Shown here: piece after piece, positions 3,290-24,445 of the stretch | Layout of the letters: every line of letters starts with the position of its first letter | How positions within the stretch are numbered: the stretch's first letter is position 1 | Source: Catellatospora sp. KI3 | Lineage (GTDB): Bacteria > Actinomycetota > Actinomycetes > Mycobacteriales > Micromonosporaceae | Assembly: GCF_029948125.1 (NCBI RefSeq) | Contig: NZ_JASAMB010000011.1 | Coordinates: 124,001-188,000, forward strand | Reading direction: 5' to 3' | Length of the DNA: 64,000 bases | Position numbers and translations under genes: made by a program | Notes under the pieces: generated by a model | Database searches by the model: none | What the model was told of the DNA's origin: nothing | The model's input: only the letters and a program-made list of their open reading frames with translations

Positions 3290-5365
3290 CTAGAAGGTCC
3301 GCTCCCCGGTCAGGCCGAAGAAGTCGTGCCACTTCGCGCCGGCGGTGAAGGAGCTGCCGGTGGAGAGGCCGACGTAGACGTCGTTGGCGGTGCCCTGGGT
3401 GAAGACGAGGATGTCGTCCTTGCCGTCGGCGTTGGCGTCGGCCAGGTACGGGAACTCTCCGGCGGTGCAGAAGAAGTCGTTCCACTTGACCGTGGTGCCG
3501 GTGAAGCCGGAACCGTTCGACAGGGCCACGTAGACGTCGGCGTCGGCGTTGCAGGTGAAGACCACGATGTCGTCGCGGCCGTCGCCGTTGACGTCGCCGA
3601 CGCGCGGCGACTCGCCGGTGACGCCGAAGAAGTCGTGCCACTTCTGGCCCGCGCCGAACGAGGTGCCGTTGGACAGCGCCACGTACACGTCGTTGGTGGT
3701 GCCCTGGGTGAACGTGATCAGGTCGGCCTTGCCGTCGCCGTTGACGTCGCCCAGGGCCGGGAACTCGCCCCAGGGGGCGAAGAACTCGTGCCACCTGGCG
3801 GCGGTGCCGACGAAGGAGGTGCCGTTGGACAGGGCCACGTACACGTCGCCCTCGCCGTCGTGGGTGAAGGTGACGATGTCGTCCCTGCCGTCGCCGTTGA
3901 CGTCGCCGACGGCGGGGATCTCGTTGCCGCCCGCGAACCAGTCGTGCCACTTGACCCCGGCGCCGAAGCCGGAGCCGGTGGACAGGGACACGTAGACGTC
4001 GTTGAGCGGCGAGTGCGTGAACGTGGCGATGTCGTCGCGGTTGTCGCCGTTGAAGTCGCCGGTCAGCGCCGTCTCGTTGAACGGGGCGAACCAGTCGTGC
4101 CACTTGCCGCCCCCGGCGAAGGCGCCGCCGGTGGACGGGGCGACGTACACGTCACCGAGGTCGTTCTGGGTGAAGGTGACGATGTCGGCGCGCCGGTCGC
4201 CGGTGAAGTCGGTGGACGAGCCGCCGAACATGCCGCCGCCGGTGAGCCTGGTCCGCATCAGCCAGACGTTGTACGGGTCCCACTGCGCCATCGTGAAGTA
4301 CAGGTACGGGCTGTCGCTGTCGGCCGACCAGGGGTGGATGAACGCCCCGTACAGCCCCGGATACTGGGCCGTGGTGGCCAGCACCTCCTCGGCGCTCCAC
4401 GGGCCGGTCGGCGTCGGCGCCGTACGCAGCACCAGCGCCCCGCGCGACTCGTTGAGGTAGGTCATCACGAACCGGCCGAGGTAGCGGCTGTGGTACACCG
4501 ACAGCTCGCCGACCGGGCCGGTGGCGACCGGGACGGTGGCCCACTGGTCGGTGGTCCAGGCCGAGCCGTTCCAGTACCGGTAGGCGGTCGGTTCGAGCAG
4601 CGAGCCCTCGGGTACGCGCGACAGCCAGGTGCTGCCGAAGCGGCCGTTCATGGTGCCGTACAGGTAGACGAAGCCGCCCTGCCGCAGCATGGCGCCCATT
4701 TGGAACCGGTTGTCCCAGGCGGGGGTGTTCTGCCACCGGGCGTCGGCGTCCTTGATCCACGTCTGCCCGTTGTCGTCGGAGTACGCGATGCCGCTGTAGT
4801 TGGTGTACCAGCGCCCCGCGTCGCCCCAGTGGTTGACCGACATGTAGTGGATGAACTGCCGGTTGCCCACCGAGATCGCGGCGGTCGGGATGACCGTCAT
4901 CTCGTTGTTGTCGATCTGCTTGCAGGGCAGGATCGTGCCGGCGTGCCCGGCCCGGTCCAGCACCGCGTTGTCGAAGATCATGCCGTCGGCGAGGTTGCGG
5001 TCGGCGCTGCGGACCAGCACGTTGCAGCGCCAGTCGATGGTGGCGCCGTTGCCGACGCCGCCGCCCGGGCCGGTCCAGCCGTTGCCGAACGTGTCGCCGA
5101 AGACGGTCAGCACCTGGCCGCTGCCGTTGTCCCACATGATGCCCAGGTCGGTGGCTTTGAGCTGCCACCTCGTGTCGGTGGCGTTGATGGAGCCGGGACC
5201 CGTCAGCTTGGCGACCTTCTCGGCCGGGCCGGTGACCGCCGCTGCCGCGGCCGGGGCCGCGGCGGGGCCGGAGACCCCGGGCGGGGCGGCCGAAGCCGCC
5301 CCGCCCAGCCCGGCCAGTACGAGCGCCGCGATGCCCGCGGCGATCGGAAGCCGGGTCGTTCTCAC
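3290..5365 (-). CDS. Secreted DUF4185 (GH183-type) glycosidase with six-unit VCBS/FG-GAP propeller
   Basis: 691 residues. A signal peptide (about 1-27, [20 protein letters not shown]) and an alanine-rich linker precede a DUF4185 domain at about residues 45-375. Landmarks are [38 protein letters not shown] and [12 protein letters not shown]4185 is the family classified as GH183, with endo-D-arabinanase activity shown for some members; its role here is inferred. Residues ~380-691 hold six repeats of about 50 residues with the DxNGDGxxD calcium-loop motif and a KWHDWFA blade motif. The GTG start overlaps the stop of the upstream gene by four bases (GTGA) and has GGAGAGG seven bases ahead, so it is translationally coupled as the last gene of a three-gene unit. 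Confidence 0.8.
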
Positions 5366-7473
5366 AGTGTGACCTCTCCGTTCAGGCCGAAGAAGTCGTG
5401 CCACTTGGCGCCGCCGAGGAAGCCGGAGCCGGTGGACAGCCCGACGAACACGTCGTTGGTGGCGCCCTTGGTGAAGACGATGATGTCGTCCTTGCCGTCG
5501 CCGTTGTAGTCGCCCACGTACGGGAACTCGCCGGCGATGCAGAAGAAGTCGTTCCACTTGACGGTGGTGCCGACGAAGCCCGCGCCGTTGGACAGCGCGG
5601 CGTACACGTCGGCGTCGGCGTTGCAGGTGAAGGTGACGATGTCGTCCTTGCCGTCGCCGTTGAAGTCGCCGACGCGCGGCTTCTCCGCGCCCACCGCGAA
5701 CAGGTCGTGCCACTTCTGGCCGGCCCCGAACGAGGAGCCGTTGGACAGCGCCACGTATACGTCGGCGGCGGTGGCCGCACCCTGGGTGAACGTGATGATG
5801 TCGTCCTTGCCGTCGCCGTTGACGTCGCCGACGGCCGGGAACTCCCCGGCGGGGGCGAAGAACTCGTGCCACTTCACGCCCGCGCCGAAGCCGGTGCCGG
5901 TGGACAGGGCCACGTACACGTCGCCCAGGCTGTCGTGGGTGAAGGTGATGATGTCGTCCTTGCCGTCGCCGTTGAAGTCGCCGACTGCCGGGACCTCGGC
6001 GCCGGGGGCGAACCAGTCGTGCCACTTGGCGCCGCCGAGGAAGCCGGTGCCGGTGGACAGGCCGACGTACACGTCGCCGAGCGTGCCGCCGGTGAACGTG
6101 ATGACGTCGTCCTTGCCGTCGCCGTTGAAGTCTCCGGTGAGCAGCTTCTCGCCGTTGAGGCCGAAGAAGTCGTTCCACTTCACCGACGTGCCCGCGAAGG
6201 CCGAGCCGGTCGAGGTCGCCACGTACGCGTCGTTGAGCGAGCCCAGGTTGAACGTGACGATGTCGTCCTTGCCGTCGCCGTTGAAGTCGGTCGGCGAGCC
6301 GCCGGGGGTGACCCCGCCGCCGCCACCGGAGTTCACCAGCGACATGTAGTAGTTCCAGTTCCAGTTCGGGCCCGGGTCGGTGTGGTCGTTGCCCGGCATC
6401 TCGTTGTGGCCCTTGATGTTGGTACGGGACTTCGGCAGGCCCCACTTCTCGCACAGGTAGCGGGTCAGGTTCGCCGACGAGCGGTACATGGCGTCGGTGA
6501 ACCACGCCGGGTTGTCGACGAAGCCCTCGTGCTCGATGCCGATGCCGTACGAGTTGGCCGACCGCGCGTGGTAGGCGGTGTCCTCCTCGCGCACCATCTG
6601 GGTGACCTCGCCGTCGCTGGAGCGCACCACGTAGTGGGCGCTGACGCCCGCCGACGGGTTCTGGAACCAGCTGACCGTGCCCGCGTAGGAGCCCTGGGTC
6701 ACGTGGATGACGACCGTGGTGATCCCCGCCGAGCGGCCGGGGGAGTAGTTGTTGCCGTTGGCGGCGATCCAGCGCGCACCCGGGTACTGCGGGACGGGCG
6801 CGGCCAGGGCGGCGACGCCCTGCGGGGCGGCGGCCGGCTTGGCTGCCGTGGACTGCTCGCCCGCCATCTGGATCTTCGCGAACCGGCCGAGCTCGGGGCG
6901 GACCTTGTCCGGCGCGGCGGTGACGGTGCCGCCCTCGGTGCGGACGGCGACGCCCTGCTGGACGACCTGGTAAACGTAGTCGGCGTACAGCTTGGCGGTG
7001 GCGTCGCTGCCGGCGCCCGCGTACTCGGCGACGGCGGAGAACCAGGCGCCGGTGCGGGCGCGGTCGGCAGCGGTCAGCCCCGCCTTGTCCGCGTACGAGC
7101 GCAGTACCGCGGCCGCGCCCTTGACGTTGGCCCTGGCGTCGCTCTTGAGCACGGCCTCGTCCAGGCCGGTGAGCTGCGACGCCAGTGCCAGGCTGCGGTT
7201 GCGCGGGTTGTCGGCCAGGTGCATGATCCCGTAGCCGTTGTCCTGGCTGGGCAGCCCGTCGTGGTCGATCAGCCGGGTCTCGCCGTAGCCGACGGCCACG
7301 AGCAGGCCCTTGGGCACGCCGTAGGACCTGGCCGCCGCGGTGAACACGGCGTCCATCCCGGCGGCCAGGGCCGGTTTCGCGACGGCGGGTGCCGCCGACA
7401 GCAGCAGTGCGCCGGTGAGGGCGGCGCCGAGCAGGGTCGCTGCCCGGACGCGCCGGTAGGGCAGGGGTGTCAC
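5362..7473 (-). CDS. Secreted peptidoglycan hydrolase: lysozyme-like plus N-acetylmuramoyl-L-alanine amidase, with VCBS propeller
   Basis: 703 residues. Signal peptide about 1-33 ending AAPAVAKPA. Residues ~40-180 look like the lysozyme/transglycosylase-like module that precedes amidases in actinomycetes ([30 protein letters not shown]). Residues ~230-390 are an Amidase_2/PGRP domain with likely zinc ligands in VVIHVTQGS and [17 protein letters not shown], and the YGIGIEHEG strand; it should cut the amide between MurNAc and the stem peptide. A short glycine linker leads to six VCBS repeats (~400-703). A longer start at GTG 7524 overlaps the upstream stop as GTGA. I prefer GTG 7473 because GGAGGA sits four bases ahead and the signal peptide begins there. 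Confidence 0.85.
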
Positions 7474-7520
7474 GGATTCCTCCAGTACGCGAGGGGTGGT
7501 CGCGGATCGGGTGGAGCGGG

Positions 7521-8960
7521 TCACAGCGTGGTCTCGCCGTTGAGGCCGAAGAAGTCGTGCCACTTGGCGCCGCCGAGGAAGCCGGTGCCGGTGGACAGTC
7601 CGACGTAGACGTCGTTGGTGCCCGCCTTGGTGAAGACCACCGCGTCGTCCTTGCCGTCGCCGTTGACGTCGGAGAGGTAGGGGAACTCGCCCGCGGTGCA
7701 GAAGAAGTCGTTCCACTTGACGGTGGTGCCGACGAAGCCCGCGCCGTTGGACAGCGCGGCGTACACGTCGGCGTCGGCGTTGCAGGTGAAGGTGACGATG
7801 TCGGCCTTGCCGTCGCCGTTGACGTCGCCCACGCGTGGCAGCTCGTTGCCGACGGCGAACAGGTCGTGCCACTTCTGGCCCGCCCCGAACGAGGAGCCGT
7901 TGGACAGCGCCACGTACACGTCGGCGGCGGTGGCCGCACCCTGGGTGAACGTGATCAGGTCGGCCCGGCCGTCGCCGTTGACGTCGGCCACGGCCGGGTA
8001 CTCCCAGGCGGGGGCGAAGAACTCGTGCCACTTCACGCCGGGCGCGAAGGAGCTGCCGGTGGAGAGGCTCACGTACACGTCGCCGCGGGCGTCGTGGGTG
8101 AACGTGATGATGTCGTCCCGGCCGTCGCCGTTGACGTCGCCGACGGCCGGGATCTCCGCGCCGGGGGCGAACCAGTCGTTCCACTTGGCGCCGCCGAGGA
8201 AGCCGGAGCCGGTGGACAGGCCGACGTACACGTCGCCGGCGGTGCCGCTGCCGTGGGTGAAGGTGACGATGTCGTCCTTGCCGTCGCCGTTGAAGTCGCC
8301 GGTCAGCGGGGTCTCGCCGCCGACGGCGAAGAAGTCGTTCCACTTCACCGAGGTGCCGGCGAAGGCGCTGCCGGTGGAGGGCGAGACGTACACGTCGGCC
8401 AGGGTGCCCTGGTTGAACGTGACGATGTCGTCCTTGCCGTCGCCGTTGAAGTCGGTCGGCGAGTTGGCGTGGATCTCGGCGGCCCGGCGGGCGGTGGCCA
8501 GCAGGCCGCCAGCGGTGCCCTGGACCTGGTCGTAGCGGTCCGGGAAGCCGGAGCGCTGCACGCACTGGGCGACCTGTCCGGTGGTGTAGCCCGGGTGGTC
8601 CCGGTCGCACACGATGGCGCGCACGAAGTACTGCGTGGCCGAGTAGACCGGGTCCATGATCTGCTCGGGGGTGCCCCAGCCGTAGTCCCAGCGCTGCTGG
8701 AACACGCCCAGGGAGGACTTGTCGCCGCACGGCAGGTTGTTCATGTGCGACTCGACCCAGCCGGTCTCGAAGCCCGAGAGCATGACCTTGTCGTTGACGT
8801 TGTTGGCCTTGCCGACCCGGTAGACGATCACGAGGACCGACGGGTCGGCGGTGGCGGGGATGGAGGTGCAGGCGGCGTTCGCCGGGGAGGCGAAGCCGAC
8901 CGCGGTGAGGACGGGGGCGATCAGTAGGGGGGTGAGGAGGATCGCGAGCTTGCGTCGCAT
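7521..8960 (-). CDS. Secreted lysozyme-like protein with six-unit VCBS propeller
   Basis: 479 residues. Signal peptide [20 protein letters not shown], cut near ASPANA. Residues ~30-155 form a lysozyme-like module common in actinomycete cell-wall hydrolases and phage lysins: [40 protein letters not shown], and [16 protein letters not shown]. The glutamate of GFETGWVE is a candidate acid, and the cysteines could pair. The rest is six VCBS/FG-GAP repeats nearly identical to those of the next two genes. The ATG at 8960 is preferred over an in-frame GTG six bases upstream because AGGAG lies five bases before it. First gene of the leftward unit 8960-3290. Confidence 0.8.
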
Positions 8961-9108
8961 GGCCACTCCTGGTTCGGGGGGAAGCCCGCCACGGTGCGGG
9001 CAGGTTCGGCTGGCCGTCCCGGTAGGACAGCCTGTGACCAGGTGATTCGGGGTTTGCCTAGCGCGTGGACCGACGCGTTCGGTGCAGCGCGTGATGGACG
9101 GCTATGAA

Positions 9109-9151: not shown

Positions 9152-9168
9152 GTAAATCTTTTTCATAT

Positions 9169-9228: not shown

Positions 9229-10233
9229 TCAGGCGACGGACGGCCGGTTGGAACTGGCGCGCACCTTCAGCTCGGTACGCAGAGTGACCGTCGACGGCGG
9301 ACGCGACGGCTCGGCGATCCGCTCGGCCAGCAGCAGCGCCGCCGTGCGGCCCAGCTCGTAGGTCGGCTGCGCGACCGTGGTCAGCGACGGCCGCACCAGG
9401 TGCGCCCACGGGATGTCGTCGAAGCCGACCACGCCCATCCGGTCCGGCACGCTGATGCCCCGGTCGGCCAGGCACTCCAGGGCCCCGATGGTCATCAGGT
9501 TGTTCGCCGCGAAGATCGCGTCGGGCCGCTCGCCCTCGTCCAGCAGCGCGGCCATCGCCTGGTAGCCGCCCTCCTGCCGGTAGTCGCCGTGGCGGACCAG
9601 CTCGTCGTCGGCCGGGCGCCGGTGCGCCCGGAGCGCCCGCTGGTAGCCGCGCAGGCGCTGCTGGGCGGTGGGCAGCCTGCGCGGGCCGCCGATGCAGGCG
9701 ATGCGCTCGTACCCGGCCTCGATCAGGTGCTCCACGGCCAGCTCGGCGCCGTGCTCGTTGTCGACCAGCACCGTGTCGACGGCCGCGCCGCGCACCTCGC
9801 GGTCGATCGCGACCACCGGCGTACCGGCCTCGATCAGCCGGTTCACGTTGGCGGCCCTGCCCGCCGACGAGATGATCACGCCCGCCATCTGCTCCTCGAG
9901 CGCCGCGGCCACGTAGCGGGCCTCCTTGGCGGCGTCCTCGTCGCTGTTGCACAGGACCACCGAGTAGCCGGCCCCCTGGGCCACGTCCTCGATGCCGCGC
10001 ACCATGGAGGTGAAGAACGGGTTGCCGATGTCGGAGATGACCACGGCCCAGATGCTGGTCTGGCGGCGGCGCAGGTTGCGGGCCAGCGCGTTGGGGCGGT
10101 AGTCCAGTTCCCGCATGGCCTGCTGCACCCGGGCGGCGAGCGCGGTGTCGACGCTGGCCCGGCCGTTGACGACCCGGGACACGGTGGCGGCGGAGACCCC
10201 GGCCTGCTTGGCCACGTCGTAGATGGTCGCCAT
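9229..10233 (-). CDS. LacI-family transcriptional regulator
   Basis: 334 residues. The N-terminal helix-turn-helix and hinge are unmistakable: MATIYDVAKQAGVSAATVSR, VVNGRASV, then LDYRPNALARNLRRRQT. The periplasmic-binding-protein-like sensor domain follows, with the dimer and ligand landmarks VISDIGNPFF, VVAIDREV, AIFAANNLMTIGAL and GVVGFDDIPWAHLVRPSLTT. It lies divergently from the DUF4185-like gene at 10508 and next to the arabinan-type sugar genes, so the effector is probably an imported sugar or its phosphate. Candidate operators GAAATCGATTTC and variants occur upstream of this gene and at both neighbouring rightward promoters, implying autoregulation. Confidence 0.92.
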   Translation of the reverse strand: MATIYDVAKQAGVSAATVSRVVNGRASVDTALAARVQQAMRELDYRPNALARNLRRRQTSIWAVVISDIGNPFFTSMVRGIEDVAQGAGYSVVLCNSDEDAAKEARYVAAALEEQMAGVIISSAGRAANVNRLIEAGTPVVAIDREVRGAAVDTVLVDNEHGAELAVEHLIEAGYERIACIGGPRRLPTAQQRLRGYQRALRAHRRPADDELVRHGDYRQEGGYQAMAALLDEGERPDAIFAANNLMTIGALECLADRGISVPDRMGVVGFDDIPWAHLVRPSLTTVAQPTYELGRTAALLLAERIAEPSRPPSTVTLRTELKVRASSNRPSVA

Positions 10234-10332
10234 CGTTCCTCGCTCTCGGCCGCGGCCCCGCCTGCTCCGGTCGACATCATCCTCGGTGACGGCGTCGCTG
10301 CGGGTGCCGGGCTGTGCGCGAGCCTAGCAGGA

Positions 10333-10344
10333 GAAATCGAATTC
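10333..10344. promoter_or_regulatory. Candidate LacI operator (lacI side)
   Basis: GAAATCGAATTC is symmetric at 10 of 12 positions and has the same GAAATCGA half-site as the operators at 10421 and 13270. It lies about 100 bases upstream of the lacI start in the divergent intergenic region, a position suited to autoregulation. Confidence 0.5.
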
Positions 10345-10383
10345 CTGGACGCGCGAAGATTTCCGCCACGTTGAAGCGGTGTC

Positions 10384-10432
10384 TTGACGACGATATTCGG
10401 TCGATGTACGTTCCCGGCAAGAAATCGATTGC
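10384..10432 (+). promoter_or_regulatory. Promoter with overlapping LacI-type operator for the 10508 gene
   Basis: TTGACG (10384-10389), 17 bases, TACGTT (10407-10412) form a good vegetative-type promoter. The operator-like GAAATCGATTGC (10421-10432) sits just downstream of the expected transcription start near 10419. A LacI protein bound there would block initiation or clearance. Confidence 0.6.
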
Positions 10433-10507
10433 TCAACCGTGTCTTCTGAACCGTCCTGAGCAGACCTTCGCTTCCGGACGCCGACCAACCGTCCCCGGGA
10501 GGGTGCG

Positions 10508-13099
10508 ATGCGCCTGAAATCCCAGCTCCTGCCGACCGTGCTCGCGGTCGCCCTGGTGGCCGCGAGCGCCGCGGCCGCCTCATCCGCCACCACCGCCGCG
10601 CCGAGGCTGCAGCCCGTCGCCTACACCCCGCCGGCCAGCACCTTCTTCGCCACCACCAGCATCGCCAGCCACGCCACGACCCAGGCCAACGGCGACGGGG
10701 ACCTGTGGGCCAACTGCTGGTCCGACGACGACCACGTCTACGCCGCCCACGGCGACGGCAAGGGCTTCGGCCCGAACTTCTCCGACATCGGCGTCAACCG
10801 GATCACCGGCATGCCGGGCTCGCTGGCCGGCACCACGCTGGCCCTGGGCGACCAGGTCGGGCAGGTCTGGACCGCCAACCACACCCGCAAGCCCACCGGT
10901 ATGGCCTGCGCCGACGGCTCGCTCTACCTGGCCGTGCAGGACCTCGCGCTGGACTTCGACGACGCGCCCGCGGCGACCGTCGCCCGCTCGACCGACCACG
11001 GCCGCACCTGGTCCTGGAACCGGTCGGCGCCGATGTTCGGCAACGGCGTGTTCACCACGATCATGTTCCTGGACTACGGCAAGAACTACGCCAACGCCGT
11101 CGACGGCTACGTCTACGCGTACGGGCTGGACGGCAACTGGCGGGACTCGTTCGCCAACCGGGTGCCCGACCCGGTCGACGTCTACCTGGCCCGGGTGCCC
11201 CGCGCGTCGGTGCAGAACCGGTCCACCTGGCAGTTCGTCTCCGGCTTCGACGCCGGCGGCACGCCGCAGTGGTCGTCGGACATCAACCGCCGCGTGGCGG
11301 TGCTGCACGACGACCGGCGCGTCTACCCCGACGTGTACACCGCCAACCGGGTGCGCAACCTGAGCGTGATCAGCCAGGGCGGCGTGGTCTACGACAAGCC
11401 CCTCAACCGGTACCTCTACACGTCGTGGACCGAGTACACGTTCGAGTTCTACGAGTCGCCGACGCCGTGGGGTCCGTGGAAGCCGTTCGCGACCAAGGAC
11501 TTCGGCGGCTACCCGTGGACCACGGCCAAGCACGGCGGCTACGCCACGACGATCCCGTCGAAGTACATCAGCGCCGACGGGCGGTCGGTGTGGCTGCAGT
11601 CCAACGTCTGCCCGTGCGGCGGCGGCGGGACGGCGGTGTACACGTACTCACTGCGGCCGATGTCGCTGGTGCCGTACACGGCCACCACCGCGGCCAACGC
11701 CTACGACCCGGCGCGCAACCTGGCCCGCGAGCCGGGCACGGTGCCGGTCGAGCGGGTGGCGCACTACGGCAACTACGGGTTCTACAACGACGGCAACCGC
11801 GGCGTCAGCGAGGACGACTGGAACGACGAGCGCAAGGGTGAGAGCTGGTGGGGCTACACGTGGCCGCGCCGGTACGCGATCAACAAGGTCGTGTTCACCA
11901 GCGGCGCGACGTTCGCCGACGGCGGCTGGTTCGCCGCGAATCTGCGGGTGCAGGTGCGGCGCAACCACGTGTGGAGTGACGTGCGCGGGCTGAAGACCGC
12001 GCCGCTGTACCCGTACAGCAACGCCGCGGGGCCGTACAAGACCTACACGCTGGGCTTCGACCCGGTCGACGCCGACGGCGTGCGGATCATCGGGGCGCCG
12101 GGCGGGACCCGGACCTTCACCTCGATCGCCGAGCTGGAGGTGTACTTCGGCACGTACGCCGGAATGCCGCTGGGCGGGTCGTCGACCGATCTGACCGGCG
12201 ACGGCAGGGACGACGCGGTGGTCTTCACCCAGAACGCGCTGGCCGACCTGTACGTGGGCGCCTCGACCGGCAGCTCCTTCGCCGGTGGCGTGAAGTGGCA
12301 CGACATGTTCTCGCTGCCGGGGGAGACGCCGCTGACCGGCGACTTCAACGGCGACGGCAAGGACGACGTGGTCACCTTCACCCGCGGCACCCTCGGCGAC
12401 GTGTACGTGGCCCTGTCCAACGGCGGCGGCCTGGGGGCCGGCACCAAGTGGCACGACTGGTTCGCCCCGGCGGTGGAGACCCCGGCGGTCGGCGACTTCA
12501 ACGGTGACGGCAGGGACGACGTCATGACGTTCGTCCAGGACGGCAACGGCGACGTGTTCGTGGCGCTGTCCAACGGCTCCTCGTTCGGCGCCGGGGTCAA
12601 GTGGCACGAGTTCTTCGCCCCGCCGGGCGAGTTCCCGGCCGTGGCCGACTTCAACGGCGACGGCAGGGACGACATCGTCACCTTCACCCAGGGCGGCGCG
12701 GGCGACGTGTACGTGGCGCTGTCCAACGGCTCCTCGTTCGGGCCGGGCGTGCTGTGGCACGACACCTTCGCCTGGGGCGGGCAGACCCCGCGCGTCGGCG
12801 ACGTGAACGGCGACGGCAGGGCCGACGCGCTCGCGTTCGTGCAGGGCAGCGACGACGTGTACGTGGCCCTGTCCAACGGGTCCTCGTTCGGGGCGGCGCA
12901 GCTGTGGCACAGCGCGTTCGCGCCGCTGGGGCAGTTCCCGTACCTCTCCGACGTCAACGGGGACGGGAAGGCCGATGCCGTCGCGTTCTCCAGTGACGGC
13001 GACGCCGACGCGTGGGTGGCGCTGTCCACCGGCTCGGGCTTCGGCGCCGCGACCAAGTGGAACGACTTCTTCGGCCTGGCCGGAGAGACCGCGTTCTGA
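10508..13099 (+). CDS. Secreted DUF4185-like glycosidase with discoidin-like domain and VCBS propeller
   Basis: 863 residues. Signal peptide about 1-27. Residues ~45-390 form a sialidase-like beta-propeller that I assign to DUF4185 or a close relative: [70 protein letters not shown]. Residues ~400-545 resemble an F5/8 type C (discoidin, CBM32-like) sugar-binding domain ending [10 protein letters not shown]. Residues ~555-863 are six VCBS repeats matching those of the leftward genes. An endo-acting arabinanase is the best guess, weaker than for the protein encoded at 3290-5365. GGGAGG precedes the ATG, and a strong hairpin at 13125-13184 closes the gene, so it is probably monocistronic. Confidence 0.72.
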
Positions 13100-13235: not shown

Positions 13236-13281
13236 TTGACAGGGTCGCGTTCAGAGGCCTAGTTTTCCGGAAATCGATTTC
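13236..13281 (+). promoter_or_regulatory. Promoter and perfect LacI-type operator of the sugar operon
   Basis: A consensus TTGACA (13236-13241) and TAGTTT (13260-13265) with an 18-base spacer predict a start near 13272. The perfect 12-bp palindrome GAAATCGATTTC (13270-13281) lies exactly there. This repeats the promoter/operator geometry at 10384-10432 and is the best candidate site for the adjacent LacI regulator. Confidence 0.7.
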
Positions 13282-13328
13282 TCGTTCTGGGTACCCGCCC
13301 AGGGCAGGCAACCGACGAGAGGACCATC

Positions 13329-14009
13329 GTGACGACGCAATCGGCCGGCGAACCCGGCCAGCACGCGCCGGAACCGGGACGGCTCGCGCCTTCGCGGCCG
13401 CAGGACGCGGGCATGGACGCCGCCCGCGAGACGCTCATCCGCGAGGCGGAGGCGATCTCCGCGCTGGTGGAGCGGCTGGGCGACGAGTTCGGCGCGGTCG
13501 TGGACCTGATCCTGGCCTGCCGGGGCCGGGTCATCGTCTCCGGCCTGGGCAAGTCCGGCCTGATCGGACGCAAGATCGCCGCCACGCTGGCCAGCACCGG
13601 CACCCCCACCCACTTCGTGCACGCGGCCGAGGCGCTGCACGGCGACTCCGGCATGGTCGCCCCGGCCGACGTGCTCATCGCGCTGTCGGCCTCGGGCGAG
13701 ACCGCCGAGGTCTGTGCCTTCGCCCGCATGGTCGCCGTCCGGGGCTGCCAGGTGGTCGCGCTGACCGGCCGGCCCCGATCGACCCTCGGCGCGATCGCCG
13801 GGTTCACCCTCGACGTCACCGTCGACCGCGAGGCCGACCCGCTCAACGTCGCCCCGACCGCGTCCACCACGGCCACCCTGGCCATGGGCGACGCGCTGGC
13901 CTCGGCGCTGATGGTGCGCCGGGGCTTCACCTCGGAGGAGTTCGCCGGATTCCACCCGGGCGGAACGCTCGGCCGGCTGCTGCTCGGCACCACGGAGGAG
14001 GACCGATGA
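13329..14009 (+). CDS. SIS-domain sugar-phosphate isomerase, D-arabinose-5-phosphate isomerase-like
   Basis: 226 residues, matching the SIS domain of the KdsD/GutQ/KpsF family, which interconverts D-arabinose 5-phosphate and D-ribulose 5-phosphate. Visible landmarks: VSGLGKSGLIGRKIAATLAS (about 70-89), STGTPTHFVHAAEALHGD, LSASGETAEV, PTASTTATLAMGDALA and FHPGGTLGRLLL. The lysine of GKSG, the glutamate of AEALHGD and the histidine of HPGG correspond to residues important in that family. The two C-terminal CBS domains of full-length KdsD (about 320 residues) are absent, so this is a SIS-only form. GTG start with AGAGGA ahead. First gene of an operon and overlapped by the kinase gene. A catabolic role is inferred from context; other SIS isomerase activities remain possible. 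Confidence 0.82.
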   Translation: MTTQSAGEPGQHAPEPGRLAPSRPQDAGMDAARETLIREAEAISALVERLGDEFGAVVDLILACRGRVIVSGLGKSGLIGRKIAATLASTGTPTHFVHAAEALHGDSGMVAPADVLIALSASGETAEVCAFARMVAVRGCQVVALTGRPRSTLGAIAGFTLDVTVDREADPLNVAPTASTTATLAMGDALASALMVRRGFTSEEFAGFHPGGTLGRLLLGTTEEDR

Positions 14010-15034
14010 CCGCGGCCGAAGACCGGGCGTACGACGTGTGCGTGCTCGGCAGCTTCATGAAGGACCTGATCGCGCAGGCGCCCCGCAGGCCGGAGACCGG
14101 CGAGACGCTGCGCGGACACGGCTTCTACGAGGCGCTCGGCGGCAAGGGGCTCAACCAGGCCGTGGCCGCGGCCCGCGCCGGAGCGCGCGTCGCCATGGTG
14201 GGGCGCCTGGGCGCCGACCGGTACGGCGAGGAGTTCCTGCTCATGCTGGCCCAGGAGGGCATCGACGCCAGCCAGGTGCACCGCGACGCGGACCTGGGCA
14301 CCGGCGTGGGTCTGCCCGTCGTGGAGCCCACCGGCGCGAACTCGATCATCATCGTGCCGCGCGCCAACGAGGCGGTCACCGCCGCCGACGTCGAGGCCGC
14401 GGCCGGGGTCATCCGGAGCAGCCGGATCCTGCTGGTGCAGCTGGAGCTGCCGGTCGAGGCGGTGGTGGCCGCGCTGCGGCTGGCCCGCGCGGCCGGGGTG
14501 TTCACCGTGCTCAACCCGGCGCCCTACGCCGATCTGCCCGGCGAGATCGCCGACCTGGTCGACGTGATCGTGCCCAACGAGGTGGAGGCCGAGCAGCTCA
14601 CCGGGCTGTCCTGCCGCGGCGACGCGGCCCTGGGCGTGGCGCTGAAGCTGCGCCGGGACTTCGCCGGCACGGGTGCGGTGGTGACGCTGGGCGGCCGGGG
14701 CGTGGTCGTGGTCGACCGCGACACCGACGAGCCCGAACCCGGCTGGCGCATGAACGCCCTCAACGCGTACGACGTCGACGTGGTCGACACCGTGGGCGCC
14801 GGGGACGCCTTCTGCGGCGCGCTGACCGCACGGCTGGCCGCGGGGGACAGCCTGCTGGCGGCGACCGAGTTCGCCTCGGCGGCCGGTGCCCTGGCCGTCA
14901 CCCGGCACGGTTCGGCCCCGGCGATGCCGGCGCTGGACGAGATCACCGCCCTGCTCCACGGGCCGGGCGGGGCCTGGTCATCGCGGCAGCCCGCCGCGGT
15001 GGCGTCCGCATCCGACACCGCGGGTGGTGCCTGA
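14006..15034 (+). CDS. PfkB-family carbohydrate kinase (ribokinase-like)
   Basis: 342 residues. PfkB signature 1 is the GGKGLNQAVAAARAGARV segment (about 47-64), and signature 2 with the catalytic aspartate is VDTVGAGDAFCGAL (about 259-272). VVTLGGRGVVVVD is the nucleotide-site strand. The fold resembles ribokinase, which phosphorylates the 5-OH of pentofuranoses. The ATG overlaps the isomerase stop as ATGA with GGAGGA upstream, so kinase and isomerase are translationally coupled. With an arabinose-5-phosphate isomerase-like partner, the most economical substrate is D-arabinose giving D-arabinose 5-phosphate (inference). D-ribose and D-fructose are alternatives. The C-terminus carries about 20 residues beyond the usual fold. 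Confidence 0.85.
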   Translation: MTAAEDRAYDVCVLGSFMKDLIAQAPRRPETGETLRGHGFYEALGGKGLNQAVAAARAGARVAMVGRLGADRYGEEFLLMLAQEGIDASQVHRDADLGTGVGLPVVEPTGANSIIIVPRANEAVTAADVEAAAGVIRSSRILLVQLELPVEAVVAALRLARAAGVFTVLNPAPYADLPGEIADLVDVIVPNEVEAEQLTGLSCRGDAALGVALKLRRDFAGTGAVVTLGGRGVVVVDRDTDEPEPGWRMNALNAYDVDVVDTVGAGDAFCGALTARLAAGDSLLAATEFASAAGALAVTRHGSAPAMPALDEITALLHGPGGAWSSRQPAAVASASDTAGGA

Positions 15035-15143: not shown

Positions 15144-16508
15144 ATGGCGTACGACAACCAGCCGGGCGCGATCAGCCGCCGCTCCATGCTGCGGGCCGGT
15201 CTGCTCGGTGCGACGCTGCTGGGCTCCGGCGTGCCGCTGCTGTCGGCCTGCGGGTCCGGCGACCAGGGCAGCGGTGACGCCAAGGAGCTGGTGTTCTGGA
15301 ACTTCTACGGCCCGAACCCGGACGGCAACGCCCAGAGCAAGTGGTTCGAGGACCTGGCCGCGAAGTGGAACGCGAACAACGACGTCAAGATCAAACTGCA
15401 CTACCTGCCGGTCTCGGAGTACCTCGGCGGCACCGCGCTGCAGACGGCGTTCTCCTCCGGCGCCGGGCCGGACATCTTCATCATCAGCCCCGGTGACTTC
15501 CTGCGCTACTACAACGGCGGCGTGCTGACCGACCTCACTCCGCACCTGGGCGCGGGCGCCAAGGATGACTTCGTCGACGGGGTGCTGGACACCCGTACCG
15601 TCGAGGGCAAGGTCTTCGGCCTGCCGATGGAGATCGAGCCGCTGGCGATGTACTACAGCACCGACGCGTTCGAGAAGGCGGGCCTGTCCGAGGGCGACCT
15701 TCCGAAGACCTGGGACCAGCTGCTCGACGTCGGCCGGAAGCTGACCGACGACAAGCGCTTCGGCCTGCTGTTCGAGACCGCGCCCGGCTACTACCAGAAC
15801 TTCACCTGGTACCCGTTCATGTGGCAGGGCGGGGCGGCCGCGGTCGGCCCCGACGGCAAGAGCGGCTTCAACAGCGACGCCGTGCACAAGGCGCTGGGCC
15901 TGTGGGGCGACGCGGTGAAGAACGGCATCGCCCCGAAGAAGACCCAGGGCGACGGCGGCGGCAACGCCGTGGCGAACCTGGCCTCGGGCTTCTGCGCCAT
16001 GCAGCAGACCGGCATCTGGTCGGTGTCGCAGCTGGAGACCGACGCCAAGGACTTCAGGTACGGCGTGTTCCCACTGCCCACCCCCACCGGCGGCACCTAC
16101 ACCACCGACATGGGCGGCTGGGCGTTCTGCGCCAACGCCAAGGGCGGCAACCCGCAGGCCGCGGCGAAGTTCATCGCCTGGGCGCTGGGCTCGACCGACG
16201 CCGAGGGCGTCGAGCGGATGCGGCAGTGGAACACCGTCGTCAAGACCAACATGCCCTCGCGCAAGTCGGTCAAGGAGGCGGCGACCAAGGCCGGGGCGTT
16301 CGAGAAGCCGGCGCTGAAGACGTTCATGGAGCAGGTCGTGCCCGGTGGGCGGGCCGAGCCCCGGTACACCCCCGAGGTGTACAAGGCGATCTCCGACGCG
16401 ATCCAGGCGACCATGCTGGGCGGGGCGGTCCCCGCCACGGCCGCCGCGGACGCCGCTGGGAAGATCGACGCCTTCCTGTCCGGGTACAAGGGCGCCGCGA
16501 TCCTCTGA
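15144..16508 (+). CDS. Sugar ABC transporter substrate-binding lipoprotein
   Basis: 454 residues, family 1 extracellular solute-binding protein. The N-terminus combines a twin-arginine motif (SRRSMLRAGLLGATLLG) with a lipobox LLSAC whose cysteine is at about residue 36, so it should be Tat-exported and lipid-anchored. The mature part starts KELVFWNFYGPNPDG and contains GLPMEIEPLAMYYSTDAFEK and MGGWAFCANAKGG, usual in carbohydrate-binding members. Preceded by AGGAGGAATACGAAT, a strong ribosome binding site. The 109-base gap after the kinase shows no terminator, so it belongs to the same operon. Likely ligand: oligo- or disaccharide released by the secreted glycosidases. Confidence 0.92.
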   Translation: MAYDNQPGAISRRSMLRAGLLGATLLGSGVPLLSACGSGDQGSGDAKELVFWNFYGPNPDGNAQSKWFEDLAAKWNANNDVKIKLHYLPVSEYLGGTALQTAFSSGAGPDIFIISPGDFLRYYNGGVLTDLTPHLGAGAKDDFVDGVLDTRTVEGKVFGLPMEIEPLAMYYSTDAFEKAGLSEGDLPKTWDQLLDVGRKLTDDKRFGLLFETAPGYYQNFTWYPFMWQGGAAAVGPDGKSGFNSDAVHKALGLWGDAVKNGIAPKKTQGDGGGNAVANLASGFCAMQQTGIWSVSQLETDAKDFRYGVFPLPTPTGGTYTTDMGGWAFCANAKGGNPQAAAKFIAWALGSTDAEGVERMRQWNTVVKTNMPSRKSVKEAATKAGAFEKPALKTFMEQVVPGGRAEPRYTPEVYKAISDAIQATMLGGAVPATAAADAAGKIDAFLSGYKGAAIL

Positions 16509-18382: not shown

Positions 18383-19474
18383 ATGAGTTACGGGCGATTC
18401 GGCTCCAGCCTGCGCGACCTGCCGCGGCTGCGGCACAGCAAGCGGCGGCGGGAGTCGAGCTGGGACCGCACCGGCGGCAACGACGACCGGCTGACCATCG
18501 CGCCGGGCGCCACGGCGGTGCTCGCCGACATCACCGGCCCCGGTTCGATCAACCACATCTGGTGTACGGTCGCCCTGCCCGGCAAGGACGTGCCCGACCA
18601 GACCGAGACCGACTACCTGCGGCGGCTGGTCCTGCGCATCACCTGGGACGACTCCGACGCCCCGAGCGTGCTGGCGCCGCTGGGCGACTTCTTCGGCATC
18701 GGCCACGGCAAGACCCGCAACTTCACGTCGGCTCCGCTGCAGATGAGCCCGCAGGACGGCAAGTCGTTCAACAGCTGGTTCCACATGCCGTTCGCGGGCC
18801 GGGCCAAGGTCGAGCTGATCAGCGACATGGCCGACCAGCCGGTCTTCTTCTACTACTACGTGGACTACGAGCTGTACGAGCCCGGCGCGGCCGAGGACAT
18901 CGTCAGCGAGCTGGGCTACTTCCACGCCCAGTGGCGCTGCGAGCGGCCCACCGACGGGATCCCGCAGGGCACCGCCAGCCACCGCGCGCACCAGGTGGAG
19001 GGCGAGAACCTGACCGGGGACGGCAACTACGTCATCCTCGACGCGGTCGGCCGGGGCCACTACGTCGGCTGCGTGCTCAACATCCGCAACCTGCGCCAGA
19101 CCAGCGACTGGAACTGGTACGGCGAGGGCGATGACATGATCTTCATCGACGGGGAGCAGTGGCCGCCGAGCCTGCACGGGACCGGCACCGAGGACTACTT
19201 CGGCACCGCGTGGTGCCCCACCCAGGAGCACCACGCGCCGTACCACGGCATCACCCTGCCGGGCGGGGAGAACTGGAGCGGCGACATCTCGCTCTACCGG
19301 TTCCACATCGAGGACCCGGTGACGTTCACCGAGTCGATCCGGGTGACCATCGAGCACGGGCACGCCAACAAGCGCTCCGACGACTTCTCGTCCACGGCGT
19401 ACTGGTACCAGACCCTGCCGCACCGCCCGTTCGACCTGCCCCCCGTCGCCCAGCGGGCCGCCGTCCTCGGCTGA
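18383..19474 (+). CDS. Cytoplasmic DUF2961/GH172 glycosidase
   Basis: 363 residues, a stand-alone DUF2961 domain. Family landmarks: GPGSINHIWCTVALP near the N-terminus, LRITWDDSDAPSVLAPLGDF, FNSWFHMPF, and the catalytic region DWNWYGEGDDMIFIDGEQ followed by HGTGTEDYFGTAW (about 236-275). Its glutamates match the positions used as nucleophile and acid/base in GH172. Members include exo-acting D-arabinofuranosidases and a difructose-anhydride enzyme. There is no signal peptide and no VCBS domain, unlike the paralogue at 21188-24445. It should therefore act on an imported oligosaccharide. AGGAG lies before the ATG, and it is the last gene of the operon that starts at 13329. A palindromic element follows the stop codon. 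Confidence 0.85.
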   Translation: MSYGRFGSSLRDLPRLRHSKRRRESSWDRTGGNDDRLTIAPGATAVLADITGPGSINHIWCTVALPGKDVPDQTETDYLRRLVLRITWDDSDAPSVLAPLGDFFGIGHGKTRNFTSAPLQMSPQDGKSFNSWFHMPFAGRAKVELISDMADQPVFFYYYVDYELYEPGAAEDIVSELGYFHAQWRCERPTDGIPQGTASHRAHQVEGENLTGDGNYVILDAVGRGHYVGCVLNIRNLRQTSDWNWYGEGDDMIFIDGEQWPPSLHGTGTEDYFGTAWCPTQEHHAPYHGITLPGGENWSGDISLYRFHIEDPVTFTESIRVTIEHGHANKRSDDFSSTAYWYQTLPHRPFDLPPVAQRAAVLG

Positions 19475-19488
19475 GCGCGGACCTGACA

Positions 19489-19550: not shown

Positions 19551-19684
19551 AGATCGCGCGGAACGGTCACCGGCTCCACGTCAGCAAGCCGCCGCTGCCT
19601 AGGATCAGCCCGAGCCTGCACGGCGTGCTCGGATGCCTCTCGCGAACTCTTCCGGGGGTCGTGACCACCGGAGAGGATCAGGAC

Positions 19685-20326
19685 GTGAAGAAGTATGTGC
19701 TCTTCGACCATGACGGTGTGCTGGTGGACACCGAGTACTGGTACTACCGGGCCGGGGAGCGCGCACTGGCCGACATCGGGCTGACGCTGGACAAGGCGCG
19801 GTACCTGCGGGACATGAGCGCGGGTGCGGGCACCTGGGCCCAGGCCCGGGCGGCAGGCGTCGACGAGCCGACCATCAACCGGCTGCGCGAGGTCCGCAAC
19901 GGTTACTACCAGCAGTATCTGCGCACGGAGGCCATTGAGATCGAAGGCGTCGTCGAAACGCTCGCCGAACTGTCGAGACACGTCCGCATGGCCATCGTGA
20001 CGACGGCGAAGCGCGCGGATTTCGAGCTCATCCACGAGCGGCGCCAGATCCGGCGGTTCATGGACTTCGTGCTCGTCCGCGAGGACTACCGGCTCGCCAA
20101 GCCGCATCCGGAGCCGTACCTGACCGGCTTGCAGCGTTTCGGAGCCGTCAAAGCGGAGGCGCTGGTGGTGGAGGATTCAGCCAGGGGGCTGAACTCGGCG
20201 GTGGCGGCGGGTGTCGACTGCGTCGTCGTCCATAACGCGTTCACGGCAGGGCAGGACCTCTCGCGGGCGAGCTGCCGGATCGGGACGCTGGCGGAGTTGA
20301 GGGGCGTCATCCTGGGCGACGTCTGA
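19685..20326 (+). CDS. HAD-superfamily phosphatase/phosphoglucomutase-like hydrolase
   Basis: 213 residues. Motif I with the nucleophile aspartate is VLFDHDGVLVDTEYWYY at the N-terminus. Motif II is VTTAKR, motif III the lysine of RLAKPHPEPYL, and motif IV VEDSARGLNSAVAAG. The cap domain between residues 15 and 85 is alpha-helical as in beta-phosphoglucomutase/phosphoglycolate phosphatase relatives. GTG start with GAGAGGA upstream. It follows the sugar operon after a palindromic element and so is probably transcribed separately. Dephosphorylation of sugar phosphates is possible but not shown. Confidence 0.82.
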   Translation: MKKYVLFDHDGVLVDTEYWYYRAGERALADIGLTLDKARYLRDMSAGAGTWAQARAAGVDEPTINRLREVRNGYYQQYLRTEAIEIEGVVETLAELSRHVRMAIVTTAKRADFELIHERRQIRRFMDFVLVREDYRLAKPHPEPYLTGLQRFGAVKAEALVVEDSARGLNSAVAAGVDCVVVHNAFTAGQDLSRASCRIGTLAELRGVILGDV

Positions 20327-20336
20327 TGATGTCGGA

Positions 20337-20744
20337 TCATTCGTCTTCGGTGCGGGTGGCCTGGGACCACACGCAGCGCCATCGCCCGGATCGCTCGTCG
20401 TGCCGGTAGCAGTCCAGGTGCCACGCGTTCAGTGACACGTACTCGCCACGGTCGACGGCGATCTCGATCGCGGACCGGTACCGCACGACCGCGACGCCGT
20501 CGCCGGCGAGCACCTGTATCGCCGTCACCGCCTCGAATCTCCGGTAGTCGATCGATCCGTCGGTGACACCGCCGAGGTAGAACGCCCTGTCCCACACGCC
20601 GCCGCCCGGATTGACCAGGATGAAGTCGTCGGCGTGCAGCTCGTCCAGCAGCGCGGTGTCCGCTGCCACCAGGGCGGCCAGCCGCAGCAGTTCCTGTTCC
20701 GCGAGTCGGCCTGTGTCGGCTGTGCTTCCCGTGGTGTCATCCAT
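20337..20744 (-). CDS. NTF2-like (DUF4440/SnoaL-type) protein
   Basis: 135 residues with the cone-shaped alpha+beta-barrel pattern of the NTF2 superfamily: an N-terminal helix (EQELLRLAALVAADTALLDE), then LHADDFILVNPGGGVWDRAF, and strands GVAVVRYRSAI and WHLDCYRHDERSGRWRCVWS. Related proteins are ketosteroid-isomerase-like or of unknown function. It converges on the HAD gene with only 10 bases between stops, leaving no room for a separate terminator. Confidence 0.75.
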   Translation of the reverse strand: MDDTTGSTADTGRLAEQELLRLAALVAADTALLDELHADDFILVNPGGGVWDRAFYLGGVTDGSIDYRRFEAVTAIQVLAGDGVAVVRYRSAIEIAVDRGEYVSLNAWHLDCYRHDERSGRWRCVWSQATRTEDE

Positions 20745-21044
20745 CCGGCCACCCTAGGACATGAGCGGCCGGCACCACGTCCGTCACCGTCTGTTGAAGT
20801 CTATCTCGGGTGGTCCGGCGTTGATCGCCGTCGCGGGTCAGTGCACCGCCTGAACCGGGCCGTTCTGGCCGCCGACGGCGATCAACGCGGGTCGGGTCTT
20901 CGAAGATCACGGCTGGCGGTCATGCTCCGGGCGCCGTCCAAGGCCGATTCCAGGATCCGGACCGCTGGCGGCGATCATGCCGAGGGCCCGGCGCGCAAGA
21001 TCGCCACTAGCGGTCATTCACCGGGCGAGAACGCGGACCCGATC

Positions 21045-21106
21045 TGCAGTTTCGGGGAAAGTGCAGGAATCCGGCCCAAGATTCGTGCACTTTCCCCGAA
21101 ACTGCA
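21045..21106. repeat. Palindromic element, family B, copy 2
   Basis: 62 bases with perfect 21-bp arms (left 21045-21065, starting TGCAGTTTCGGGGAAAG; right 21086-21106) around a 20-base loop. Same length and outer arms as the copy at 19489-19550. Confidence 0.75.
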
Positions 21107-21134
21107 CCGACGCCCGACGCCCGACGCCGACGCG

Positions 21135-21180
21135 CATGCGGAAGGGGCGGCTCCCGTGCGGGAGCCGCCCCTTCCGCATG
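21135..21180 (-). terminator. Strong hairpin terminator of the secreted GH172 gene
   Basis: Perfect 22-bp inverted repeat (21135-21156 with 21159-21180, arm starting CATGCGGAAGGGGCGG) with a 2-base loop, eight bases beyond the stop codon on the minus strand. No T run follows. Confidence 0.7.
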
Positions 21181-21187
21181 CCCTCGA

Positions 21188-24100: not shown

Positions 24101-24445
24101 GCTGACGTCGCCGCCGTCGCGGGTGAACCAGATCGACTGGATCTCGCCGGGGCCGGTGTCCTCGGCGATGACGCAGCCGCCGGACTGGCGCAGGCAGGAC
24201 CAGTCGCCGCCGAAGCCGTCGTTGTTGGAGCCGCCGCGGTCGAAGCTGGAGAACTGCCGCGTCTGGCTGCCGGCGGCCAGGTAGGGGAGCCGGTCGAGGC
24301 GGCGGTAGACGTCCCAGCCGACCGGACCCTTGTCCGCGGCGGCTGCGGCCGCGTCGGCGCGGCCGGGTGCCAGCGGGTTCGCGGTGATCGAGACGGCGGC
24401 GACCAGGGTCGCGGCCAGTAGTGAGCGCAGGGTGGTGGCGCGCAT
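21188..24445 (-). CDS. Secreted DUF2961/GH172 glycosidase with fibronectin-III-like domain and VCBS propeller
   Basis: 1,085 residues. Signal peptide about 1-32. GH172 domain about 45-470: [64 protein letters not shown], and the catalytic segment [13 protein letters not shown] followed by [15 protein letters not shown] beta-rich middle part leads to a fibronectin type III-like domain at about 680-770 ([20 protein letters not shown]). Six VCBS repeats of about 50 residues finish the protein. It likely trims arabinan (or another furanoside polymer) outside the cell, complementing the cytoplasmic paralogue at 18383. ATG with GAGGGG ahead. Transcribed alone toward the sugar operon. Confidence 0.85.

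What the first reader, a model, noticed from the sequence alone, without database searches (positions are those of the whole stretch)
3290..24445. A predicted D-arabinan utilisation locus in an actinomycete
Seen: one DUF4185 protein and one DUF4185-like protein, two DUF2961 proteins, a LacI regulator, a sugar ABC importer, a PfkB kinase and a KdsD/GutQ-like isomerase within 21 kb. Known: DUF2961 = GH172 (includes exo-D-arabinofuranosidases), DUF4185 = GH183 (endo-D-arabinanases), and KdsD-type enzymes act on D-arabinose 5-phosphate. Inference: the genes form a full route from extracellular D-arabinan to the pentose phosphate pathway. Each part is known alone, but I am not aware of this complete assembly being described.
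Basis: partly seen in the sequence, partly recalled or inferred. Interest (0 to 1): 0.9.

Follow-up and report, generated by a model that had tools for sequence, protein, structure and literature searches.

The report
Locus for digesting mycobacterial-type cell walls
An actinomycete carries a gene set that looks built to cut up the walls of mycobacterium-like bacteria, both their unusual D-arabinose polymer and their peptidoglycan, and to use the D-arabinose as food by a route not usually linked to it.

Summary
In detail: GH183, a GH183-like protein, two GH172s, LacI, a sugar importer, a PfkB kinase and a SIS-type arabinose-5-phosphate isomerase lie where stated, with catalytic residues of GH183 and GH172 conserved. 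D-arabinan use is well supported, but a comparable actinobacterial locus was published in 2023 (Microbacterium), and no GH116 was found in this genome.

GH183 is the last of three minus-strand genes whose frames overlap; the other two encode a muramidase-like protein and an N-acetylmuramoyl-L-alanine amidase. All five secreted enzymes share one FG-GAP tail, found at 65% identity or more on two other proteins of the genome, one an M23 peptidase. Sites with at most 2 mismatches to the presumed LacI operator (GAGAAATCGATTTCTC) number three in 8.2 Mb: two here, the third 44 bases before that M23 gene.

Of 80 GH172 loci, 8 carry the isomerase/kinase pair, 27 carry fucose-isomerase-type and/or FGGY kinase genes, none both. 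The likely route is D-arabinose, arabinose 5-phosphate, ribulose 5-phosphate.

Best reading: a LacI-controlled set that digests mycolata walls (arabinan plus peptidoglycan) for food. New variant of a known kind; no activity was tested.

The parts
3290..5365 (-). Secreted GH183 (DUF4185) endo-D-arabinanase candidate with FG-GAP tail
   Evidence: DUF4185 385 bits; EndoMA1 8hhv E 4e-103, Asp33 and Asp51 aligned; these two Asp (D73, D91) invariant in 17 homologues
5362..7524 (-). Secreted N-acetylmuramoyl-L-alanine amidase with FG-GAP tail; frame overlaps both neighbours by 4 bases; an alternative start at 7473 follows a GGAGG and would leave no overlap with gC
   Evidence: Amidase_2 113.9 bits; phage endolysin and amidase families; overlaps and start context
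7521..8966 (-). gC: secreted muramidase-like protein with FG-GAP tail
   Evidence: no Pfam family for the N-terminal domain; profile of 4 homologues matches solved chains 8b2h (E 4.4e-11) and 8b2e, named Muramidase (E 6.2e-7); PHROG tape measure (E 4.2e-20) and endolysin (E 9e-12) families; AF2 model poor, no significant fold match
9229..10233 (-). LacI-family regulator
   Evidence: LacI and Peripla_BP_3
10331..10346 (.). Operator-like palindrome between lacI and gD, 3 mismatches
10419..10434 (.). Operator-like palindrome between lacI and gD, 2 mismatches
10508..13099 (+). gD: secreted GH183-like protein, weak F5/8C-type match, FG-GAP tail
   Evidence: FG-GAP and F5_F8_type_C_2 (18.5 bits, under cut-off); profile-profile match to GH183; fold match; two invariant Asp 18 apart in 12 homologues, as in GH183
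13268..13283 (.). Operator-like palindrome before SIS, 2 mismatches
13329..14009 (+). SIS-domain arabinose-5-phosphate isomerase candidate without CBS domains
   Evidence: GutQ 220 bits, KpsF/GutQ 201.7 bits, both under cut-off; PDB 2xhz E 4.5e-44; invariant K75, E127, E168, H209
14006..15034 (+). Ribokinase-like PfkB kinase, D-arabinose 5-kinase candidate
   Evidence: PfkB 196.3 bits; TIGR02152 279.2 bits, under cut-off 299.65; PDB ribokinases, best E 2e-55
15144..16508 (+). Solute-binding lipoprotein of the sugar importer
   Evidence: SBP_bac_1 140.6 bits
16549..17538 (+). ABC importer permease 1
   Evidence: BPD_transp_1 53.4 bits
17528..18361 (+). ABC importer permease 2; no ATPase gene seen beside it
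   Evidence: BPD_transp_1 56.9 bits; gene list
18383..19474 (+). GH172i: GH172 without an evident signal peptide, exo-alpha-D-arabinofuranosidase candidate
   Evidence: DUF2961 281.8 bits; alphaFFase1 E 3.4e-79, D. gadei chain 8ah3 E 2.7e-70, ExoMA1 E 1.9e-27; Glu pair aligned with E233/E254 of 8ah3
19685..20326 (+). HAD-type phosphatase, membership in the locus unproven
   Evidence: HAD_2 99.4 bits
21188..24445 (-). GH172s: secreted GH172 with FG-GAP tail; fn3 match under cut-off
   Evidence: DUF2961 211.9 bits; Glu pair in the alignments

Best explanation
A LacI-controlled gene set for digesting and eating the walls of mycolata (mycobacteria and relatives). Secreted enzymes with one kind of FG-GAP tail attack two layers: GH183, gD and the secreted GH172 cut D-arabinan; a muramidase-like protein, an amidase and, from a distant place in the genome, an M23 peptidase cut peptidoglycan. 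The importer takes up arabino-oligosaccharides and the cytoplasmic GH172 releases D-arabinose. PfkB makes D-arabinose 5-phosphate and the SIS isomerase turns it into D-ribulose 5-phosphate for the pentose phosphate pathway. Shown here: domain identity, conserved catalytic residues, gene order, recurrence in relatives, palindromes before the genes. Inferred: substrates, product flow, that LacI binds the palindromes, surface binding by the tail, and mycolata walls as the food.
For: GH183 and GH172 identity with catalytic residues conserved. Amidase, muramidase-like gC and GH183 in overlapping frames. Tail at 65% identity or more on only 2 proteins outside the locus, one M23 and one Polysacc_lyase. 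Palindrome: 3 sites with at most 2 mismatches in 8.2 Mb, two here and one 44 bases before the predicted M23 start; reversed control 0; same site before M23 in C. bangladeshensis (L003) and, with 3 mismatches, in G118 and G137. Amidase homologues of 66% identity or more: 10 of 20 places within 10 kb of a strong DUF4185 match, against 0 of 29 places of lower identity. Isomerase/kinase: SIS in 8 of 80 GH172 loci, PfkB beside it in 8 of 8; fucose-isomerase-type or FGGY genes in 27 of 80; both in 0 of 80. No Emb arabinosyltransferase and no KDO8P synthase found in the genome.
Against: No site with up to 3 mismatches lies directly before gC in the window, so control of that gene group is not shown; it could be read through from lacI. 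Of 9 sites with up to 3 mismatches in the genome, 5 lie elsewhere and were not examined. The M23 gene lacks a site in 3 of 7 genomes. The gC-amidase pair stands without an arabinan gene in the stretch seen in 4 of 17 cases. The tail also sits on a polysaccharide-lyase-like protein, and its similarity to solved lectins is weak. Three of the 4 other SIS-PfkB pairs found in the class lie outside arabinan loci. The cytoplasmic GH172 is closest to a fructofuranosidase that also cleaves pNP-D-Araf (PMC10115798). No GH116 found. Counts are not corrected for shared ancestry.
Confidence: 0.65

Rival explanations
1. Plain D-arabinan utilisation locus as in Microbacterium; the peptidoglycan hydrolases are general autolysins or scavenging enzymes that sit nearby.
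For: Published precedent without peptidoglycan enzymes named in the parts I saw (PMC10509167); the gC-amidase pair also occurs away from arabinan genes in the stretches seen of G100, G125, G009 and G109, the last at a contig end; no operator directly before gC in the window.
Against: Overlapping frames with GH183, shared tail, operator before the M23 gene, proximity of tailed amidases to GH183 against none for their less similar relatives, tailed M23 inside an arabinan cluster in G001 (L125).
Confidence: 0.22
2. The locus serves fructans or other furanosides; GH172i is an alpha-D-fructofuranosidase.
For: GH172i is closest to alphaFFase1 among solved structures; PfkB kinases include fructokinases.
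Against: GH183 with catalytic Asp conserved; recurrent GH183 and GH116 near GH172i (18 and 12 of 80 loci); kinase closest to ribokinases; A5P-isomerase residues in SIS.
Confidence: 0.08
3. The enzymes remodel or recycle the organism's own wall.
For: Mycobacteria keep GH183 enzymes, suggested to act on their own walls (PMC10115798, abstract).
Against: No Emb arabinosyltransferase family match in this genome, with C. glutamicum as positive control; importer and sugar-type regulator fit feeding; SIS branch in only 9 of 200 family genomes.
Confidence: 0.05

Closest known systems
D-arabinan PUL of Microbacterium arabinogalactanolyticum and related actinobacterial clusters (Shimokawa 2023, PMC10509167)
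   Same: Secreted GH183, GH172 without signal sequence, ABC importer, an isomerase and a kinase leading to ribulose 5-phosphate
   Different: Here no GH116 found in the genome; a GH183-like gD and a secreted tailed GH172; kinase and isomerase of PfkB and SIS families; peptidoglycan hydrolases with a shared tail
Dysgonomonas gadei D-arabinan degraders (Al-Jourani 2023, PMC10115798)
   Same: GH183 plus GH172; GH172i resembles the solved D. gadei chain 8ah3
   Different: Bacteroidetes; no peptidoglycan hydrolase is named in what I saw of the paper, and the word amidase does not occur in it
Lysis cassettes of actinobacteriophages that carry DUF4185 (PMC10115798, passage)
   Same: D-arabinanase joined with lysis genes
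   Different: Phage exit or entry, no importer or catabolism; cassette content not examined here
Umbrella toxin UmbA propeller lectins (PMC11062931, PMC13274773, passages)
   Same: Best PDB sequence matches of the tail (9oee E 1.8e-10, 8w20 E 4.2e-9); UmbA4 propeller binds wall polymers of target bacteria
   Different: The tail is joined to hydrolases, not a trypsin-like domain; the match is weak and may be generic to FG-GAP repeats; UmbB/UmbC were not looked for; that 9oee is an Umb structure was not checked
KdsD/GutQ arabinose-5-phosphate isomerases
   Same: SIS domain, active-site positions
   Different: No CBS domains; sits with a kinase and importer; no KDO8P synthase found in the genome

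Membership tests
GH183 (3290-5365) | DUF4185 domain above Pfam cut-off | tested here: met
   385 against 39.5 bits
GH183 (3290-5365) | Two catalytic Asp (EndoMA1 D33, D51; passage) | tested here: met
   aligned, invariant in 17
GH183 (3290-5365) | Endo-D-arabinanase activity | not testable with these tools
   needs enzyme assay
GH183 (gD, 10508-13099) | DUF4185 above Pfam cut-off | tested here: not met
   35.2 bits; the match in relative G016 at the place of its gD reaches 40.3 bits
GH183 (gD, 10508-13099) | Catalytic Asp pair | tested here: inconclusive
   D58 aligns with the second Asp; D40 lies 18 residues earlier, the GH183 spacing, but just outside the aligned stretch; both invariant in 12
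GH172 (two proteins) | DUF2961 above cut-off and two catalytic Glu (E233, E254 in DgGH172c) | tested here: met
GH172 (two proteins) | alpha-D-Araf specificity | not testable with these tools
   sequence places GH172i nearer alphaFFase1 than ExoMA1
KpsF/GutQ A5P isomerase | NCBIfam cut-off | tested here: not met
   TIGR00393 201.7 against 203.7 bits; GutQ 220.1 against 481; only the SIS half is present
KpsF/GutQ A5P isomerase | Active-site positions recalled for E. coli KdsD as K59, E111, E152, H193 | tested here: met
   ungapped offset of 16 to 2xhz over 29-199 (the last position lies beyond that chain and is carried by the same offset); K75, E127, E168, H209 invariant in 9; residue roles recalled, from no call
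Microbacterium-type D-arabinan PUL | GH116 exo-beta-D-arabinofuranosidase | tested here: not met
   no match in the genome; control positive in 3 of 14 genomes
Microbacterium-type D-arabinan PUL | GH183, GH172, sugar importer, isomerase and kinase | tested here: met
   isomerase and kinase families of the published PUL were not compared
N-acetylmuramoyl-L-alanine amidase | Amidase_2 above cut-off | tested here: met
   113.9 against 26 bits; catalytic residues not examined
Muramidase (gC) | Homology to a known muramidase | tested here: met
   8b2e, named Muramidase, E 6.2e-7; endolysin family E 9e-12
Muramidase (gC) | Matching predicted fold | tested here: inconclusive
   pLDDT 57.4; best Foldseek match MltE E 1.8

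The most novel reading that the evidence does not exclude
One D-arabinose-responsive LacI regulator couples D-arabinan catabolism to peptidoglycan lysis, also in trans, making a dedicated regulon for eating whole mycolata cells (predation or feeding on the dead) with a shared surface-binding tail; and D-arabinose is used kinase-first through arabinose 5-phosphate, giving a KdsD-type enzyme a natural catabolic role outside LPS synthesis.
Probability: 0.42. Interest if true: 0.78.

Novelty: new variant of a known kind. Interest (0 to 1): 0.6.

Why it matters
If true, arabinan and peptidoglycan breakdown of mycobacterium-type walls are parts of one regulon, feeding on mycolata is a regulated habit of some actinomycetes, the tailed enzymes are tools for taking such walls apart, and a SIS-only arabinose-5-phosphate isomerase has a natural catabolic role. 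Each claim can be tested with a few recombinant proteins and one regulator deletion.

Tried and rejected
Considered and rejected or left open: KDO synthesis as the reason for the isomerase (no KDO8P synthase match); synthesis of arabinan by the organism itself through Emb enzymes (no match); gD standing in for GH116 (12 loci each of 80, 2 with both, L036 and L051; about what chance gives). The HAD phosphatase and the DUF4440 gene were not shown to belong. The fold search of the gC model gave nothing usable; homology searches did instead. The tail as a proven lectin: weak PDB similarity only. Statistics ignore shared ancestry: nominal P 0.03 for the absence of overlap over 80 loci, 0.007 over the 35 with both permeases or GH183 (7 with SIS, 16 with the other genes, 12 with neither). 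Thresholds: ISO 40%, FGGY and PfkB 45% identity; L072, which has ISO/FGGY, also has a 42% PfkB match that was not counted, and a 24% ISO match in L004 was not counted. 22 of 80 loci are shorter than 21 kb, so absences there are uncertain. My first greedy ORF calls missed true genes in high-GC loci; gene content was counted by tblastn instead.
Full report
What is there. The window lies in an 8.2 Mb genome. The listed genes are confirmed. No call names the organism; the nearest named relative by the cytoplasmic GH172 is Catellatospora bangladeshensis (90% identity). The frames of three minus-strand genes, 7521-8966, 5362-7524 and 3290-5365, overlap by 4 bases at each junction, which suggests translational coupling; a second possible amidase start at 7473 behind a GGAGG would leave no overlap with gC. 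They encode a muramidase-like protein (gC), an Amidase_2 protein and GH183.

Arabinan enzymes. GH183: best PDB match EndoMA1 (8hhv, E 4e-103), both catalytic Asp aligned and invariant in 17 homologues. gD (10508-13099) misses the Pfam cut-off but matches a GH183 profile (99.1%, E 1.5e-18); its model (pLDDT 81.8) has EndoMA1 as first Foldseek match (E 4.4e-19, TM-score 0.42-0.46), followed by sialidases and GH43 enzymes. gD homologues occur in 12 of 80 GH172 loci. GH172: both proteins keep the catalytic Glu pair. The cytoplasmic one is nearer to alphaFFase1 and the D. gadei chain 8ah3 than to ExoMA1, so sequence alone does not exclude fructofuranosides; the company of GH183 (18 of 80 loci) and GH116 (12 of 80, Pfam identity) argues for arabinan. 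No GH116 was found in this genome, so removal of beta-linked caps is an open gap; whether gD fills it is unknown.

Peptidoglycan enzymes and the tail. The amidase is clear (113.9 bits). gC's N-terminal domain has no Pfam family, but a profile of four homologues finds solved chains, one named Muramidase, and gC matches phage tape-measure and endolysin families. The five secreted proteins of the locus end in the same FG-GAP tail (six repeats by my count), 50-86% identical in pairs among the seven tailed proteins of the genome. A genome search with the GH183 tail gives 12 matches: six pieces on the five proteins here, one M23 peptidase (70%), one protein with a Polysacc_lyase domain (65%), and four weak ones at 30-34%. 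The best PDB matches of the tail are two chains called Secreted esterase; 8W20 is a deposit of the umbrella toxin paper (PMC11062931, passages), and propellers of UmbA proteins act as lectins on wall polymers (PMC13274773, passages). The match is weak, so surface binding is inference.

Regulation. Palindromes close to GAGAAATCGATTTCTC lie between lacI and gD and before SIS. Similar sites stand before the corresponding genes of relatives, with a perfect copy in Spongiactinospora rosea (L009), and also in loci of the other catabolic type (L005, L006, L020, L035); several loci, such as L041 and L135, have none. In the own genome there are 9 sites with up to 3 mismatches and 3 with up to 2: two of these three are in this locus and one ends 44 bases before the predicted ATG of the M23 gene; the reversed control finds none. 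Of the six with 3 mismatches one is in this locus and five lie elsewhere and were not examined. Among seven genomes in which I saw a tailed M23 gene, four have a site with up to 3 mismatches within 400 bases upstream (own, C. bangladeshensis, G118, and G137, where it lies between M23 and a divergent secreted GH172); G009, G164 and G001 have none with up to 5. In G118 another site lies near the start of a second amidase gene, and in G061 sites lie before lacI, between lacI and gC, and before the secreted GH172 (gene positions). In the window no site lies directly before gC. That LacI binds these sites is inference.

Conservation of the wall-digesting set. Of 200 genomes of the family, 42 have an amidase relative at E up to 1e-60, at 49 places. 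Of 20 places with 66% identity or more, 10 have a strong DUF4185 match within 10 kb on the same contig; of 29 with lower identity, none. I viewed 19 of the 20 regions (and the window): 17 have gC beside the amidase, and 14 hold GH183 or GH172 (13 of the 17 with gC). The five without are G100, G125, G009, G109 (contig end) and the second G118 copy. Of the 29 lower-identity places I viewed 4; none held an arabinan gene. In G001 a tailed M23 gene lies inside an arabinan cluster with GH183, importer, GH116, FGGY kinase and GH172 (L125).

Downstream route. Among 80 GH172 loci (the best 80 of 223), 8 carry SIS, with PfkB beside it in 8 of 8 (gap between matches at most 95 bases); 27 carry fucose-isomerase-type and/or FGGY genes; none has both; 45 have neither in reach. 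In the family, 9 of 200 genomes have SIS at E up to 1e-20. Of the 8 besides this one, the 6 close homologues all have PfkB and LacI near them and GH172 or GH183 in the fetched stretch; the 2 distant ones (34% and 39%) have none of these. In the class, 5 of 394 genomes have SIS at E up to 1e-25; the 4 others all have PfkB adjacent, but only G557 lies in an arabinan locus. One of the other three (G312) has, by my reading of the translations, a ribose-type ABC importer nearby, and a 48% LacI, which fits uptake of a free pentose; the remaining two (G507, seen with little sequence on one side, and G561) show no such genes by eye. SIS keeps the four positions that I recall as the A5P isomerase active site. 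The genome has no KDO8P synthase match, and a Fucose_iso_C match only under cut-off (21.6 bits). In one FGGY locus of the family (G100, L122) the protein beside the kinase matches Fucose_iso weakly, under cut-off. So two alternative ends of one pathway are likely: isomerase first, or kinase first as here.

Literature. Shimokawa 2023 (PMC10509167; parts 1 and 4 of 8 and passages) describes the Microbacterium PUL and proposes that D-arabinose is converted to ribulose 5-phosphate by an isomerase and a kinase. Al-Jourani 2023 (PMC10115798; part 1 of 9 and passages) reports DUF4185 in lysis cassettes of actinobacteriophages and in a predator of acid-fast bacteria; the word amidase does not occur in it. 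Searches for D-arabinan with arabinose 5-phosphate isomerase (0 papers), D-arabinose with arabinose 5-phosphate, catabolism and kinase (3 papers; one seen in passages, a synthetic pathway), D-arabinose with KdsD (27 papers, 15 listed, no others opened) and wall or amidase terms (44 papers, 15 listed, 4 papers) showed me no description of the kinase-first route for D-arabinan or of a joint arabinan-peptidoglycan regulon. The library lacks most subscription papers, and I opened few of these, so this is no proof of novelty.

Verdict. Known in its arabinan enzymes, new in the coupling: overlapping genes, a common tail and a shared operator-like site tie peptidoglycan hydrolases to D-arabinan catabolism, and the isomerase/kinase pair recurs across genera. 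Function is predicted, not shown.

Noticed in passing
24507-42825 (+): Three large genes resembling a Tc-type toxin complex: SpvB/TcdB-like (24507-32711), ABC_toxin_N/neuraminidase-like (32736-39536) and TcA C-terminal TcB-binding domain (39547-42825). Described only.
   Followed up: no
46635-50180 (-): 1181-residue protein with two ABC_tran stretches and one ABC membrane region.
   Followed up: no
55765-57783 (+): Protein with a weak GH79 N-terminal match, fn3 and CBM2 domains.
   Followed up: no
L099:9364-11073 (-), elsewhere in the own genome: Polysacc_lyase-domain protein with the same FG-GAP tail as the locus enzymes, a LacI gene about 2 kb away; substrate unknown.
   Followed up: partly
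L100:9245-10363 (+), elsewhere in the own genome: A further DUF4185 protein without FG-GAP tail (235 bits).
   Followed up: partly
L139:11.9-12.3k (G133) and L130:8.8-11.4k (G051): GH183 or amidase matches of two relatives are partial or in pieces, as if genes were damaged or misassembled. Not examined further.
   Followed up: no
20337-20744 (-): DUF4440 protein between the HAD gene and secreted GH172; kept in relative G118.
   Followed up: no
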